Source: Alphaproteobacteria bacterium (GTDB lineage: Bacteria; Pseudomonadota; Alphaproteobacteria; TMED109). From it: a stretch of DNA of 64,000 nt. The stretch lies in NCBI GenBank assembly GCA_022819905.1, contig JAJEGJ010000012.1, positions 1-64,000 on the forward strand, written 5' to 3'. The translations under genes and the position numbers were made by a program. The notes under the pieces were generated by a model that was not told the DNA's origin, did not search any database, and worked only from the letters and a program-made list of their open reading frames with translations. Positions 1-8,017 of this stretch are shown in pieces (the first letter of the stretch is position 1; the number at the start of each line of letters is the position of its first letter).

Positions 1-316
1 ATCCTAACAGCATACCCATGACCCGGTGGAAATTGTTGCCTTTTACTTCGTTGAACAGCCACGTCAATACGTCAACGACCCATCGTTTTTGAGCAAAGCC
101 GCACTCTGCGGACTCGTCCAAACAGCTAATGACAAAAGGAATTGCCGAAGTTCCAATAGAGGCAGTTTCAAGTTTAGTAGCAACTTTCAACATTGTAAGT
201 TGATTTGTCGGGATAGAAGAAAACAACGTCAGCGGGCGGACGCCGCGATCAATCAATAGTGCCTGTTCAATCAGCATTCCATCGGACATCGCCAAAACGC
301 TGTTGTCACCGGTCAT
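1..316 (-). CDS. Hypothetical protein, partial (runs off left edge)
   Basis: An uninterrupted minus-strand frame starts at ATG 316-314 and continues past base 1, giving at least 105 residues. A GAGGGGAA Shine-Dalgarno stretch sits just upstream, and the start overlaps the end of the 44-aa gene by 11 bases, so the two are probably translationally coupled. The protein has no signal peptide or recognisable motif; it contains the stretch PLTLFSSIPTNQLTMLKV and a cysteine-containing segment SCLDESAECGF. Base composition is clearly AT-richer than the core genes, suggesting transferred DNA. I do not recognise the family. Confidence 0.6.
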   Translation of the reverse strand, partial: MTGDNSVLAMSDGMLIEQALLIDRGVRPLTLFSSIPTNQLTMLKVATKLETASIGTSAIPFVISCLDESAECGFAQKRWVVDVLTWLFNEVKGNNFHRVMGMLLG

Positions 317-440
317 TGTTCCCCTCTGGATCTTTCTCCTTCGGTGACTCTCGCAAGTTCTCATTCCGCAGCAATGCCTTGGCAAGTTCCTCGGGGGTAG
401 CACCGGCCAAGTCACGGTCAGGGTCGAGCATGGGTCGCAT
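306..440 (-). CDS. Small acidic/charged protein, 44 aa, unknown
   Basis: ATG at 440-438 follows AGGAAAAACAACC, which offers an AGGA ribosome site. The frame runs 44 codons to TGA at 308-306 and overlaps the start of the next gene (ATG 316). The product is mostly charged and predicted helical (TPEELAKALLRNENLRES), with no cysteine and no membrane segment. Overlap plus two good ribosome sites make a real two-gene operon likely; function is unknown. A second in-frame ATG three codons in is an alternative start. Confidence 0.5.
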   Translation of the reverse strand: MRPMLDPDRDLAGATPEELAKALLRNENLRESPKEKDPEGNNDR

Positions 441-480
441 GGTTGTTTTTCCTGTGCTGTGCCATAGCTAACCAGTGGAC

Positions 481-636
481 CTCCCCCGGCAAACCGAGAG
501 GGTTTCAGGGGAGGTACCAGGTCCGGCGAGACGCCGGACGTATGACCGAGATGGTCACCGGCTGGGCGAGATGCCCGTATCCACAGCGCTCAAGCTACGT
601 GCACGGTAGCTTCGGAAGCCGTAGGAATCACTACGG
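481..636. ncRNA. Array of stem-loops with a repeated GAGAN loop
   Basis: On the plus strand four consecutive hairpins present the same pentaloop type: AAACC-GAGAG-GGTTT (491-505, inside an outer CTCCCC/GGGGAG stem at 481-513), GTCCGGC-GAGAC-GCCGGAC (521-539), GACC-GAGAT-GGTC (544-556) and GGGC-GAGAT-GCCC (564-576). Stem sequences differ while the loop is kept. Two more stems follow: AAGCTAC/GTAGCTT (592-612) and CCGTAG/CTACGG (619-636). The block lies just upstream of the minus-strand two-gene operon, so it may be a structured leader (loops read NTCTC there) or an independent RNA on the plus strand (GNRA-like loops). No known RNA family is recognised. Confidence 0.5.
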
Positions 637-1115
637 TTGTGGCCGAAGCGACAAGCAATAGCTTGGGCGTTGTGACGCATATAACCGTTATAATCTAGAT
701 GTTGGGCCTTGGCTCCCCCGAGGCACTAGGGGTTGAGTTGGTGTGGCCACGGCATTGGTGTGGCTGAGCGTGCTTGTCTAGTAATGTATATAATCCCCCA
801 AAGAATGCGTTCTATGACTGGCTGACATAAGAGCACTACACGCACTTGCAGATTGGAACTCCGACAAAATCCTGAACGACGCATTTACGGATATTGAGTT
901 CAATCCCAAGAAGCAGATCAACTGTCAGGCGTGAGCGTTCTTGGAATAGATGAGCCCAATAGGGCGTGGGCAACTTGATGTTGCCGCCATTGACTTTTAC
1001 GAGTTTGCGGTCTTGCTGGGCAAAGTACCGGTAGGCACAGAAATTACACCTACCACCTGACCTATCATGCCCAAGGGGCGCAGACCGTCGCTCCTGCCCA
1101 CCCCGGAGGTCCAAG
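637..1115. other. Intergenic stretch, no clear gene
   Basis: AT-richer sequence. A short open stretch at about 850-930 on the plus strand (reading WNSDKILNDAFTDIEF) lacks a start codon and may be a coding remnant. TATAAT-like hexamers occur at 689-694 and 789-794, but neither has a convincing -35 at the right spacing. Confidence 0.4.
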
Positions 1116-1345: not shown

Positions 1346-1497
1346 CGAGAAATCGGTGGGACAGAACCCCGGCGATGCGCCTCGGCCTCGAGCGCAAACC
1401 GCTGACGGTCGCGGACCTCCTGCGGCCCGCTCAGCGCATCCCGAGTCCCGGGCGCAGCGGAGGGAACGGGTTACGGGCAATCGACGATCGAGCAATC

Positions 1498-2760
1498 CTA
1501 GGCAAGGCTCGATGAACCCGATTGCAGCGCGGAGGCGCGGGCCCGACGTCGGTTCCGGTCGCGGGCTTTGCGCGGTTGGTGATATCCGTTTCGTCTGGGC
1601 TTGGGTGCATGGTTCGGCGTGCCGGGCACGGGACCGTCCCCTACCACCGTAAGACGGGAACGGATCAGGCGTTCGATGGCGTCGAGGTACTTCCGTTCCG
1701 TCGGGTCGCAGAACGAGAACGCGAACCCGCCGGCACCAGCCCGCGCCGTGCGGCCGATTCGATGGACATAGCTTTCTGCCTCGTTGGGCAGTTCGTAATT
1801 GATGACGTGGCTTATGCCGTCTACGTCAATGCCGCGCGCAGCGATATCAGTCGCAACCAGCACGCGGGTTTCGCCAGCCCGAAACCGTGTTAGCACCCGC
1901 TGGCGAGCGCCTTGCGATTTGTTCCCGTGGATCACTTCGGCGTCGACGCCGGCCTGATCGAGCTGCTGCGCGATCCGGTTGGCACGATGCTTGGTTCTCG
2001 AAAACACCAGGACGCGCGACAGTGCCGGATCGTCCAGAATACGGGTCAGCAAGGCCCGCTTTCCCTGTGCACCGACGTGGTAGACGCGCTGTTCGACACG
2101 CGTCGCCGGCGTGGCTCGGGGAGTGACCTCGACATGCACGGGATCGGTCAGGATGTCGCCAGACAAGCGGGCAATCTCGGCCGGCATGGTGGCCGAGAAC
2201 AGCAGCGACTGGCGGCCGACAGGTAAGCTCGAGATTATCTTTCGGACATCGCGCACAAAGCCCATGTCGAGCATGCGGTCTGCCTCGTCCAGGACAAACA
2301 CTTCGACCGCGTCGAGCGCCAGCAGACGCTGATTCACAAGATCGAGTAGGCGACCTGGCGTGGCTGTCACGATGTCCACCCCACGCCGCAGGGCATCGAC
2401 TTGGGGCTTCTGCCCGACCCCACCGAAAATTATCGTTTGGCGTAGACGGAGGTATTGGGCGTAGGCGCTGAATTCCTCGCCGATTTGGATTGCGAGTTCG
2501 CGGGTGGGCGCGAGGACGAGCGCGCGTGGCCGGCGCTGATCAGACTGACCGCGATTGCGGGCAAGTCGGTCGAGAATGGGAAGTGCAAAGGCCGCTGTCT
2601 TGCCAGTACCGGTCTGGGCGATGCCCACCAGGTCGCGGCCGGCGAGAAGATCGGGAATGGCGCGTGCCTGGATCGGTGTCGGCACGACATGGTCTCTGGC
2701 GGCCAACGCACGCTGTATCGGACCGGCTAGACCGAGGTCCGAGAACTTGGGTTTGGTCAA
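1498..2760 (-). CDS. rhlE: DEAD-box ATP-dependent RNA helicase, RhlE-like
   Basis: Cytoplasmic RNA helicase remodelling structured RNA in ribosome assembly or decay. Motifs run in order: Q-motif region (FSDLGL...PTPIQARAIP), motif I AQTGTGKT, motif Ia PTRELAIQI, motif Ib TPGRLLDL, motif II VLDEADRML, motif III SATMP, motif IV VLVFSRTK, motif V TDIAARGIDVD and motif VI YVHRIGRTARAG. A basic C-terminal tail rich in Arg follows, as in RhlE proteins. The frame is open to 2946, but the upstream part has no family similarity; a TTG at 2760 preceded by AAGAAGGA gives the expected N-terminus (TKPKFSDLGL). Start choice is the weak point. Transcription is monocistronic. Confidence 0.92.
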   Translation of the reverse strand: MTKPKFSDLGLAGPIQRALAARDHVVPTPIQARAIPDLLAGRDLVGIAQTGTGKTAAFALPILDRLARNRGQSDQRRPRALVLAPTRELAIQIGEEFSAYAQYLRLRQTIIFGGVGQKPQVDALRRGVDIVTATPGRLLDLVNQRLLALDAVEVFVLDEADRMLDMGFVRDVRKIISSLPVGRQSLLFSATMPAEIARLSGDILTDPVHVEVTPRATPATRVEQRVYHVGAQGKRALLTRILDDPALSRVLVFSRTKHRANRIAQQLDQAGVDAEVIHGNKSQGARQRVLTRFRAGETRVLVATDIAARGIDVDGISHVINYELPNEAESYVHRIGRTARAGAGGFAFSFCDPTERKYLDAIERLIRSRLTVVGDGPVPGTPNHAPKPRRNGYHQPRKARDRNRRRARASALQSGSSSLA

Positions 2761-3222: not shown

Positions 3223-3642
3223 CTACAGCGTCCACGGATCGACAGTCTTCAGTCCCGCCGCCTTGAACGGCGCGATGTCCCGCGTCGCCACCATCATGCC
3301 ATTGGCCGCAGCGGTCGCCGCAATGTAACCGTCGGAGACCGGGATCGTTCGCCCCCCGGATCGTGCTTCCGCCATCAGCTCCGCATAGGCCTGCGAGGCT
3401 GCAAGATCGAAGGGCAGGACCCGCCCGGCAAACATGGGCAACACTTGCCCCTCCAGATCCTCGTGCAGTCGGTTCCGGCGGTGGCCGGCCGGCAGCGACC
3501 GGACCCCGAATCGCAGTTCGGCGACGGTGATGGCAGACAGATAAAGCGTTTCCAGCGCCTGCGCGTCGAGCCATTCGGCGACGCGTGGCTCCGGAGCCGA
3601 GCGCAGCGGCTCCGACACCACATTCATGTCTACCAGAATCAT
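3223..3642 (-). CDS. vapC: PIN-domain ribonuclease toxin, VapC/FitB type
   Basis: A 139-residue PIN-domain protein, the usual length. It starts with the hallmark first acidic residue in MILVDMNVVSEPLR, keeps the conserved glutamate of the SAITVAELRFGV helix and the late aspartate in IPVSDGYIAATA. PIN toxins cut RNA in the cytoplasm and are silenced by the protein encoded beside them. Its ATG overlaps the antitoxin stop by four bases (ATGA, 3639-3642), so the pair is translationally coupled and all catalytic acids appear present. The FitB branch is favoured by the FitA-like partner. Confidence 0.9.
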   Translation of the reverse strand: MILVDMNVVSEPLRSAPEPRVAEWLDAQALETLYLSAITVAELRFGVRSLPAGHRRNRLHEDLEGQVLPMFAGRVLPFDLAASQAYAELMAEARSGGRTIPVSDGYIAATAAANGMMVATRDIAPFKAAGLKTVDPWTL

Positions 3643-3890
3643 TCGAGATCGATCGGTCGGGCCGGAGCGATATCGCGTTGCGCGAAGCCCGCGAACTCCC
3701 CGTCTGTCAGCCCGGCGCGCCGGCCGATGGCGGTCAGCAGCGTCCCCAGCGCGGCTCGTCCTTCCGGCAGAACCGTTTCCTCCAGAATTGAGCGTACCTC
3801 AGCCTCGGTGCTGCGGCCCCTCAGGGCGGCGCGCACACGCAGGGCGCGATGCACCTCATCGGACAGGTTGCGGACAGTCAGCATGGCCAT
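3639..3890 (-). CDS. vapB: FitA/VapB-type ribbon-helix-helix antitoxin
   Basis: About 83 residues. The N-terminus (MLTVRNLSDEVHRALRVRAA) is the typical FitA ribbon-helix-helix DNA-binding segment, followed by RGRSTEAEVRSILEE and a C-terminal tail that would wrap the toxin. It lies directly upstream of the PIN toxin with an ATGA overlap and would autorepress the operon with it. The frame could begin at GTG 3896, ATG 3890 or ATG 3884; I took 3890, which follows a GGATAA stretch. Confidence 0.85.
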   Translation of the reverse strand: MAMLTVRNLSDEVHRALRVRAALRGRSTEAEVRSILEETVLPEGRAALGTLLTAIGRRAGLTDGEFAGFAQRDIAPARPIDLE

Positions 3891-3943
3891 AGTCACTTAT
3901 CCAGCTTGCATTCAATGCATCCAATTTATCAACATGAAGGCAG

Positions 3944-5107: not shown

Positions 5108-5437
5108 TCAAACAGGATGCATCACGGCCACTCCCTTACCGTGTCGGGCTCGGACATGGAGCGTGACTTGTAGGTCGCTGTCGAGGGCCGCGAGCATCTT
5201 CATTAGCCGGTCGAGGGTAAACCGCCCGAGATCGGCGGTGCGAATCCGCGAGAAGTCAGCGGCGGCGAATTTCGTCAGGGCCGCCGCCTGCCGCACCGAT
5301 AGCTCGCGTTTGTCCAGCACCGCGATGATCCGCGCCGCCAGGATGGCCTTGGCCTGTTTCAGGTCCGCATCGGGGTCGCCGAGGTCACGGAAGACGTTGC
5401 CACTTCCCTCGACCAGTTCGAATGTGCCCTCGCTCAT
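5108..5437 (-). CDS. higA: HigA-type antitoxin (XRE/helix-turn-helix)
   Basis: A 109-residue protein with a helix-turn-helix in ELSVRQAAALTKFAAADFSR and a C-terminal segment (FTLDRLMKMLAALDSDLQV) typical of HigA2-like antitoxins paired with Gp49-like toxins. Its ATG overlaps the toxin stop (ATGA, 5434-5437), the normal toxin-first order. The gene is intact although the toxin in front carries an in-frame stop. It would bind and repress its own promoter. Confidence 0.85.
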   Translation of the reverse strand: MSEGTFELVEGSGNVFRDLGDPDADLKQAKAILAARIIAVLDKRELSVRQAAALTKFAAADFSRIRTADLGRFTLDRLMKMLAALDSDLQVTLHVRARHGKGVAVMHPV

Positions 5438-5784
5438 GGCAACGGTCCCTCCGTCAGTCGTTTTAGCCGCCCCCGGATCAGGTCAATCTCGGCCTTCGGG
5501 GTCTTGATCCCGGTCTTCGATTTCTTCCTGAACGCGTGCAGCACCCACAGTCGACCCGCCACTTCCGTCACGTAGACCACTCGCCAGGCGTCGGCCCGGT
5601 AGCGCACTGCAATCTCCATGACTCCCGACCCCAGTCCCCGGAGCGGCTTGGCAATATCGGCTCAACCGCCCTCGGCCGCGATCGTCAGCGCCGTACCGAC
5701 GCGATCCCGCACGGCTACGGGGAACGTCATGAACGCTTTTTGCGCAGCTTTGAACCAACCGATCGGCCTCGTGTCGCCGGTCAT
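5434..5784 (-). pseudogene. higB: HigB-type toxin (Gp49-like) with in-frame stop
   Basis: The frame from ATG 5784 reads IGWFKAAQKAFMTFPVAV, meets TGA at 5664-5662, then continues in the same frame with ADIAKPLRGLGSG and the family signature YRADAWRVVYVTEVAGRLWV and LHAFRKKSKTGIKTP. Toxins of this family are ribosome-dependent mRNA endonucleases of about 110 residues; removing the TGA restores exactly that length. A restart at ATG 5619 would give only the C-terminal half. This is a toxin inactivated by one base change, with its antitoxin retained. Confidence 0.8.
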
Positions 5785-7050: not shown

Positions 7051-7392
7051 TCAAACATGGCGAGCCAAATCCATGGAATCGTGGAGCAGGCGAAGCACTT
7101 CGATCGTGGGTGCTTCCGTCGTTTTGCTGACCTGATACAGCACGAAGTGCCGGCCCTTTCTGCCGTTCCGTGCTACGTGCAGTGTCATCAGGCCCCGAGC
7201 AATGCTGTCTCGTTGCTGCGATCCAGCCACATGTGGCCCGTCAGTGAGAGCCTGGATGGCGCGCGTCAGGGTCTCGCTATAGACGTGCGCCTGTGCGTGG
7301 CCGAACTGCCGGGCGGTCCAGCGGAGAATATTCCGGAGATCGCTCTCAGCCGTGACAGTCAGTCGAATACGCCATCCAGGGTCGCCGGTCAC
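7051..7392 (-). CDS. parE: ParE/RelE-family toxin
   Basis: A 113-residue protein with the ParE fold pattern: RIRLTVTAESDLRNILRWTA at the N-terminus, a helix HAQAHVYSETLTRAIQAL, then RNGRKGRHFVLYQV and the final strand IEVLRLLHDSMDLARH. ParE toxins poison DNA gyrase; RelE relatives cut mRNA, and the sequence favours ParE by length and partner. The gene overlaps parD by four bases. No interruptions are seen, so the toxin could be active. Confidence 0.88.
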   Translation of the reverse strand: MTGDPGWRIRLTVTAESDLRNILRWTARQFGHAQAHVYSETLTRAIQALTDGPHVAGSQQRDSIARGLMTLHVARNGRKGRHFVLYQVSKTTEAPTIEVLRLLHDSMDLARHV

Positions 7393-7694
7393 GATCCGGC
7401 GTTGGTATTGGACGGCAGATCGGCGAGCGCCCTTTCAGACAGGGCGGACAGGTGCTCTTCCAAGGTATCGGCTGCGTCGAACGTGCGGAACCGTCCCTCC
7501 GCAATGTCGGCGATGCCGGCATCTGCCGCCTCGCGCATCGCTTTGAGGCGAGCCTCATTTTCGGCTTCTCGCCGCTCGACCAGCCGCAGGCCCTCGCGCA
7601 TCACTTCACTGGCATTCTGGTATCGGCCGGAAGTCACCAGCCTGACGACCAGGTTCGCCTGATGTTCTGTGAGCACGACGTTGCGTGTGGGCAT
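7389..7694 (-). CDS. parD: ParD-type antitoxin (ribbon-helix-helix)
   Basis: A 101-residue protein reading RNVVLTEHQANLVVRLVTSG and then YQNASEVMREGLRLVERREA, the standard ParD DNA-binding half, followed by a Glu/Asp-rich toxin-binding tail. The frame is open further upstream, but the family N-terminus fixes the start at ATG 7694 or 7697. It precedes and overlaps parE. A 15-base palindrome 29 bases upstream is a likely binding site. Confidence 0.9.
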   Translation of the reverse strand: MPTRNVVLTEHQANLVVRLVTSGRYQNASEVMREGLRLVERREAENEARLKAMREAADAGIADIAEGRFRTFDAADTLEEHLSALSERALADLPSNTNAGS

Positions 7695-7722
7695 CATCCA
7701 TGTCCGGGTATGGAAACTAGAA

Positions 7723-7754
7723 TGGCATATTATGCCAACCATCAAGCCGGTCAA
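7723..7754 (-). promoter_or_regulatory. parDE promoter with palindromic operator
   Basis: Read on the minus strand: -35 TTGACC (7754-7749), 16-base spacer, -10 TAATAT (7732-7727). The perfect palindrome TGGCATATTATGCCA (7723-7737) covers the -10, which fits ParD autorepression. Confidence 0.5.
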
Positions 7755-7789
7755 GTCGAACAGGAATGACGCAACGGATGTGGCTGCCG

Positions 7790-8017
7790 GCGATCTCGAT
7801 CCCGGTGTTCGAGTACAAGAACCAACGTCGCCATCGACCGGGCCTGGGGGTTCATCTGGCGGGCGGCGGCGACTGACACGGCCTGCCATGACGGCTCGAT
7901 GCTATGCCTGGTCATGAACGACAACGCAGCGGCCAGCGTTTGGGCGGATACCGCGTACCGCTGGGCCGCCAAAGAGGCATGGCTGAAGAGGCTGAGACGA
8001 GTCTCACGGATCCACGA
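7790..8017 (+). pseudogene. IS5-family transposase fragment
   Basis: The frame reads ISIPVFEYKN, shifts by one base, then continues VAIDRAWGFIWRAAATDTAC and VWADTAYRWAAKEAWLKRLR to RVSRIHD. This is the catalytic region of IS5-group DDE transposases (family pattern IPVFGYKNH...DRRHG...VWADTAYRS.ANEAWL...SHIH). Both ends of the gene are missing and there is at least one frameshift, so it is a dead remnant. A separate IS3-like end lies 144 bases downstream. Confidence 0.75.

What the first reader, a model, noticed from the sequence alone, without database searches (positions are those of the whole stretch)
481..636. Tandem hairpins with an invariant GAGAN loop and variable stems
Four successive stem-loops (491-505, 521-539, 544-556, 564-576) each expose GAGAG, GAGAC, GAGAT and GAGAT. 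Stems differ but stay paired, so the loop is the conserved part; the last three loops are spaced 20 bases apart. Two further stems follow at 592-612 and 619-636. GNRA-like pentaloops are known protein or RNA docking elements (for example boxB hairpins), though that link is inference. The array lies upstream of two overlapping unknown genes on the minus strand, and could be their leader or a separate RNA that works with them.
Basis: partly seen in the sequence, partly recalled or inferred. Interest (0 to 1): 0.62.

Follow-up and report, generated by a model that had tools for sequence, protein, structure and literature searches.

The report
Hairpin array in a transposon end
A row of small hairpins that share one loop motif but have different stems lies just inside the right end of a transposon; the same kind of row occurs at the start of head-scaffold genes in a group of uncultured phages, which suggests a recurrent, undescribed RNA docking element.

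Summary
The hairpins are real: four GAGAN loops closed by C-G, stems all different, last three loops exactly 20 nt apart; no such cluster occurs elsewhere in the 64 kb, and none with four members in 60 simulated windows. The surroundings explain the locus. Window 1-798 is the right end of an IS1595-family transposon, cut by the contig start: its terminal repeat lies at 775-798, two same-genus genomes show the empty site, and a third carries a complete related element (IS1595 transposase, 8-bp target duplication). There the region is about 70% identical, the small gene P0002 is conserved, and two hairpins persist 20 nt apart with loops GGGAT and GAGAT, one stem carrying two compensatory changes. 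Eight other IS1595 elements of the genus lack the array. Independently, a phage group (capsid proteins 64-86% identical) keeps two or three such hairpins with variable stems at the scaffold-gene start in most members. Rfam knows neither array; Pfam, PHROGs and PADLOC do not know the two small genes. Most likely it is a protein-docking RNA element (GNGA loop plus one base) in the transposon's subterminal region. Function, binding protein and even the transcribed strand are not shown.

The parts
1..798 (.). Right-hand part of an IS1595-family transposon, truncated by the start of contig C57 (left end and transposase not in the window)
   Evidence: G006 and G002 match the window only from 797/798 onward at 94-95%; 70% DNA identity of 331-553 to a complete IS1595 element in G003
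775..798 (.). Right terminal inverted repeat, TGTCTAGTAATGTATATAATCCCC
   Evidence: 3 mismatches in 24 to the left terminal repeat of the G003 element, read as reverse complement; empty-site comparison
799..806 (.). Presumed 8-bp target duplication CAAAGAAT (present once at the empty site)
   Evidence: only one copy is visible because the other end is missing
309..440 (-). P0002, 44-aa gene of a conserved small-protein family (GATPExLAxALLR) carried by IS1595 elements of this genus
   Evidence: 76% identical over 37 aa to P0004 in the G003 element; relatives in further IS1595 elements
2..316 (-). P0001, passenger ORF (105 aa visible, cut by the contig end), overlapping P0002; no relatives found
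476..519 (+). Hairpin 1: 11-bp stem capped by AAACC-GAGAG-GGTTT
521..539 (+). Hairpin 2: GTCCGGC-GAGAC-GCCGGAC
   Evidence: counterpart CGGC-GGGAT-GCCG in the G003 element
543..557 (+). Hairpin 3: TGACC-GAGAT-GGTCA
   Evidence: counterpart GGGC-GAGAT-GCCC in the G003 element, two pairs changed on both sides
563..577 (+). Hairpin 4: (T)GGGC-GAGAT-GCCC(G)
582..674 (+). Long bulged hairpin; 16-bp base 582-597/659-674 with two G-U pairs on + (A-C on -)
   Evidence: a long hairpin of unrelated sequence sits at the same place in the G003 element
366..410 (.). 5' arms of long-range complementarity to 702-763; lies inside P0002; not kept in the relative on the minus strand and weak on plus
702..763 (.). 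3' arms of the same long-range complementarity
794..1018 (+). Insertion target: decayed C-terminal remnant (internal stops) of a NADAR-DarT1 antitoxin-like gene
   Evidence: 53% identity over 75 aa to WP_015061884, whose family is PF22397

Best explanation
Shown: the array lies in the subterminal non-coding region of the right end of an IS1595-family transposon, between the start of its conserved small gene P0002 and its terminal repeat, and a shorter version is kept in a related complete element. Inferred: it works as an RNA. The hairpins present a GNRA-like loop with one extra base (GNGA plus N) as repeated docking sites, 20 nt apart, for an RNA-binding protein of the host or the element, and occupancy controls expression of element genes. 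The plus strand is mildly preferred as the functional one, because unrelated phages carry the same loop class in sense orientation at scaffold-gene starts, where binding would control translation. The main alternative is a minus-strand structured leader of P0002. Docking, control and strand are all untested.
For: Array beyond chance. Transposon context: empty sites, terminal repeats and target duplication ATTCGTTG on both sides of the G003 element, transposase PF12762 E=4e-39. In the related element two GNGAT hairpins remain exactly 20 nt apart; hairpin 3 changes A-U to G-C and C-G to G-C while staying paired; the loop change GAGAC to GGGAT is of the type that phages also show. Phages: L529 (=L291), L530, L532 and L534 have three and L536 and L537 two GNGAN hairpins at the scaffold start, a count reached by no other window of the same locus; L510 has two, reached by 1 of 208. 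L530-L537 and L510 were fetched by protein similarity, not by the array, and their stems differ. GNRA-like pentaloops with a looped-out base are protein-contacting motifs in known structures (PMC12550061). Extra plus-strand stability of 582-674, -54.6 versus -44.0 kcal/mol.
Against: Only one homologous transposon end is known, and it keeps two of the four hairpins. Eight other complete IS1595 elements of the genus have none, so the array is not needed for transposition of the family. Strand signals conflict: in the relative, hairpin 1 keeps a pentaloop stem only on the minus strand through three G-U pairs, and the whole folds better on minus, -72.8 versus -67.2. No expression data, no identified binding protein, no recognised promoter. 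The link between transposon and phage arrays rests on shape and loop motif, not on homology; the phage seed was chosen by loop sequence, and distant cultured relatives of the phages lack the motif.
Confidence: 0.45

Rival explanations
1. Minus-strand leader. The hairpins are the structured 5' leader of the P0002-P0001 transposon operon (loops NUCUC on that strand) and guard it against transcription entering from outside the element, as 5'-UTR folding does for other insertion-sequence genes.
For: Array ends about 35 nt upstream of the P0002 start, with an AGGA motif before the ATG; P0002 and the array are kept together in the relative; hairpin 1 of the relative pairs fully only on minus; a 5'-UTR fold and sRNAs control the ISPpu9 transposase (PMC8450116). 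Long-range pairing 366-410/702-763 is strongest on minus in the window.
Against: The long-range pairing is absent from the relative on minus (99 of 300 shuffles as good); the 582-674 stem prefers plus; the loop class shared with phages is GNGAN in sense orientation; no promoter was recognised.
Confidence: 0.3
2. DNA-level element. The palindromes act as double- or single-stranded DNA, for example as transposase or host-factor sites near the transposon end, and RNA plays no part.
For: Subterminal position beside the terminal repeat; folding potential on both strands with contradictory strand signals; regular 20-nt pitch.
Against: Transposase sites normally share sequence across copies and ends, whereas here only the loop is constant and the stems change; not seen at the left end of the relative or in eight other family members.
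Confidence: 0.13
3. Decaying relic. The array descends from something functional elsewhere (a phage leader picked up by the transposon, or an old passenger gene's regulatory region) and has no function now.
For: Target gene decayed; most relatives lack the array; only two of four hairpins shared with the relative.
Against: All 33 pairs of the four window hairpins are Watson-Crick, which decay would have broken; compensatory changes in hairpin 3.
Confidence: 0.1

Closest known systems
IS1595-family transposons (ISXO2-like, PF12762)
   Same: Terminal repeat, empty site and a complete same-genus relative with DDE_Tnp_IS1595 transposase, 8-bp target duplication and passenger genes
   Different: A subterminal array of GNGAN hairpins is not among the features I know for the family, and is absent from eight other members checked here
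CsrB/RsmZ-type sponge RNAs and CsrA-controlled leaders
   Same: Tandem short hairpins, constant loop, variable stems, spacing near 20 nt (CsrA bridges sites 10-63 nt apart, best above 18 nt: PMC7652899)
   Different: Loop is GAGAN/GNGAN, not GGA; most selected CsrA loops have six bases; stems here are longer and stronger
Lambdoid boxB hairpins
   Same: GNRA-like pentaloop as protein docking site
   Different: boxB has the extra base before the last A (e.g. GACAA in P22, PMC12550061); here the extra base follows the A, the closing pair is C-G and sites are in tandem
Start-associated sequences (SAS/ESAS) of Cluster K mycobacteriophages
   Same: Short repeats at phage translation starts, of unknown function (PMC3203893)
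   Different: SAS is one conserved 13-bp sequence, GGGATAGGAGCCC; here only the loop is conserved
RNA phage coat-protein operator hairpins (e.g. MS2; from general knowledge)
   Same: Working analogy for the phage arrays: hairpin at a start codon of a phage gene, in several cases with the AUG in loop and closing base
   Different: DNA phages, tandem hairpins, different loop; no binding data

Membership tests
IS1595-family transposon | DDE_Tnp_IS1595 transposase encoded by the element | not testable with these tools
   Window element is cut by the contig start; the related G003 element has it (PF12762 E=4.3e-39)
IS1595-family transposon | Terminal inverted repeats | tested here: met
   Window 775-798 matches the G003 terminal repeat with 3 mismatches in 24
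IS1595-family transposon | 8-bp target duplication | tested here: inconclusive
   Perfect in G003: ATTCGTTG at L558 2750-2757 and 5822-5829; in the window only one flank is present (CAAAGAAT)
IS1595-family transposon | Absence of the element from relatives at the same site | tested here: met
   G006 and G002 continue uninterrupted across the site
CsrA/RsmA-binding array | GGA in the hairpin loops | tested here: not met
   Loops are GAGAG, GAGAC, GAGAT, GAGAT
CsrA/RsmA-binding array | Two or more sites within 10-63 nt | tested here: met
   Spacings 32, 20, 20
boxB / N-type antitermination | GNRNA pentaloop | tested here: not met
   Fifth loop base is G, C or T, never A, in the window
boxB / N-type antitermination | N-like arginine-rich peptide encoded nearby | not tested
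   Element is incomplete
Any Rfam 15 family | Match at the curated gathering score | tested here: not met
   Window: tRNA only; permissive scan of 1-1300 gives one chance hit elsewhere; none at the phage arrays
Transposon guide RNA (omega or bridge RNA) | Partner TnpB-type nuclease or IS110-type recombinase in the element | tested here: not met
   The complete G003 element encodes an IS1595 transposase and small passengers only

The most novel reading that the evidence does not exclude
Tandem GNGA-plus-one pentaloop hairpins with freely varying stems and a 20-22 nt pitch are an undescribed class of regulatory RNA shared by tailed phages and transposons and read by a common RNA-binding protein; in phages they act as translational operators of the head-scaffold gene.
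Probability: 0.22. Interest if true: 0.75.

Novelty: new variant of a known kind. Interest (0 to 1): 0.5.

Why it matters
If it holds, a simple loop-only signal has been reused by mobile elements of two unrelated kinds, which points to a shared RNA-binding protein not yet recognised in these bacteria. The phage side is directly testable: the hairpins sit on the start codons of scaffold genes, where dosage control is expected to matter for head assembly.

Tried and rejected
Relatives of P0001/P0002 in phages, plasmids, IMG/VR and species genomes: none outside the IS1595 elements of the genus. A covariance model with randomised stems, R1, in 385 class genomes: only weak hits; those inspected look like coding chance matches. 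Two-hairpin model R2 in 240 class genomes: weak hits, those inspected being coding. Uniform tandem repeats with GAGAC loops in Thiotrichaceae (L209) and Hyphomicrobiales (L183) were set aside: identical stems mean simple duplication. L304, L408 and L441 look like phage arrays too, but as two-hairpin or coding cases they are near the chance level of so large a search. Distant cultured capsid relatives (Acutalibacter, Arthrobacter, Rhodococcus and Mycobacterium phages) show no GNGAN array. One giant RNA 344-784 closed by long-range pairing: significant in the window but not supported on minus, and weak on plus (11 of 300), in the relative. Guide RNA: no partner enzyme.

Full report
1. On the plus strand four hairpins lie at 476-519, 521-539, 543-557 and 563-577. 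All have a pentaloop GAGAN closed by C-G, and stems of unrelated sequence. Loop starts are 496, 528, 548 and 568. No other cluster of three or more hairpins sharing a loop exists in the window, and no four-member cluster arose in 60 simulated windows. With a looser definition (GNGAN, 3 bp) the region has four, while 3100 other windows have none or one.

2. What the locus is. A DNA search of the nearest genomes gave the answer. Two same-genus genomes, G006 and G002, align to the window only from 797/798 on, at 94-95%, and read without interruption through the site. So window 1-798 is an insertion. A third, G003, carries a complete 3,064-bp element (L558 2758-5821) bounded by inverted repeats GGGGATTATATACCC.../...GGGTATATAAGTCCC and a perfect 8-bp direct repeat ATTCGTTG. 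Its transposase is IS1595 type (PF12762, E=4.3e-39). The window ends in the same terminal repeat (3 mismatches in 24), and 331-553 is 70% identical to the right part of that element. The insertion lies at the edge of the decayed remnant of a NADAR-DarT1 antitoxin-like gene. The contig starts inside the element, so the transposase is not seen in the window.

3. P0002 is most likely a genuine small gene: its counterpart in G003 is 76% identical over 37 residues although the DNA is about 70% identical, and related small proteins with the motif GATPExLAxALLR occur in further IS1595 elements of the genus. P0001 has no relative anywhere searched.

4. Conservation of the array. In the G003 element hairpin 2 is CGGC-GGGAT-GCCG and hairpin 3 is GGGC-GAGAT-GCCC, again exactly 20 nt apart. 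In the alignment, two of the four inner pairs of hairpin 3 change on both sides (A-U to G-C, C-G to G-C). The long hairpin behind the array is present with quite different sequence. Eight other elements with both ends recognised have no such array. This is one informative pair of sequences, so the evidence for selection is real but small.

5. Phage parallels. A pattern scan of IMG/VR found a phage contig (L291, with near copies L302 and L361) bearing CCAGC-GAGAT-GCTGG, TGGGGC-GAGAT-GCCCCA and TGAAC-GAGAT-GTTCA directly before and across the scaffold-gene start, behind a promoter-like sequence. The following gene is a major head protein (PHROG 10). Searching with that capsid protein, not with the array, gave relatives at 64-86% identity. 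L530, L532 and L534 have three hairpins at the same place, L536 and L537 two, L531 one; stems differ and loops are GAGAT, GAGAG, GAGAA, GCGAT, GTGAT or GGGAT. In six of the eight loci tested no other window of the same locus reaches the count. In several cases the AUG of the scaffold gene is formed by the loop end and closing G. Distant cultured relatives lack the motif. Rfam has no match at these places.

6. Mechanism. The common denominator is G-N-G-A-N closed mostly by C-G: a GNRA-class loop with one added base. A survey of structures shows that such pentaloops, with the extra base flipped out, often contact proteins (PMC12550061). I therefore propose a protein-docking RNA in the transposon's subterminal region. 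Not shown: transcription, binding, effect.

7. Strand. In the window 582-674 is better on plus (two G-U pairs in its base). In the relative, hairpin 1 is better on minus (three G-U pairs), and so is the whole. The phages support GNGAN as the sense loop. I keep plus as a mild preference and give the minus-strand leader as first rival. Control of insertion-sequence genes by a folded 5'-UTR is known, for example ISPpu9 (PMC8450116).

8. Limits. The phage seed was found by its loops, so only its relatives and the G003 element are independent support.

Noticed in passing
L291 3755-3815; L530 2378-2432; L532 2386-2440; L534 2369-2423; L536 2366-2400; L537 992-1022 (+): Uncultured phage group with tandem GNGAN hairpins of variable stem at the scaffold-gene start, in several cases with the AUG in the loop and closing base; no Rfam match in the members scanned.
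   Followed up: partly
window 794-1018 (+): Decayed C-terminal remnant, with internal stops, of a NADAR-DarT1 antitoxin-like gene; the transposon is inserted at its edge, and two sister genomes have an uninterrupted 66-aa remnant there.
   Followed up: partly
window 3223-3896, 5108-5619, 7051-7889 (-): Three type II toxin-antitoxin pairs within 5 kb: PIN/FitA-like (VapBC type), Gp49/HTH_37 (HigBA type) and ParE/ParD.
   Followed up: partly
L558, L593, L594, L595 and window 309-440: Small-protein family with motif GATPExLAxALLR (44-67 aa), no Pfam match for the two members scanned, carried by IS1595 elements of this genus; looser TPE-containing small ORFs sit near the right ends of L597 and L598.
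   Followed up: partly
G000 contig C69:1-1544 (L591): The window's genome has a transposase 83% identical to the G003 one, and a passenger (P0005 relative) running towards a contig end; possibly the left half of the element whose right end opens the window.
   Followed up: no
L209 6990-7240 and L183 about 1455-1545 (minus strand): Uniform tandem palindromes with GAGAC loops (TGACCCGAGACGGGTCA about ten times; TATGACGAGACGTCAT three times) in Thiotrichaceae and in a phage-like Hyphomicrobiales contig.
   Followed up: no
G000 contig C63:2072-2959: The genome's partial 16S rRNA reaches only about 76% identity over its length to the best-listed plasmid-borne rRNA genes; its placement, or a possible binning error, was not resolved.
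   Followed up: no
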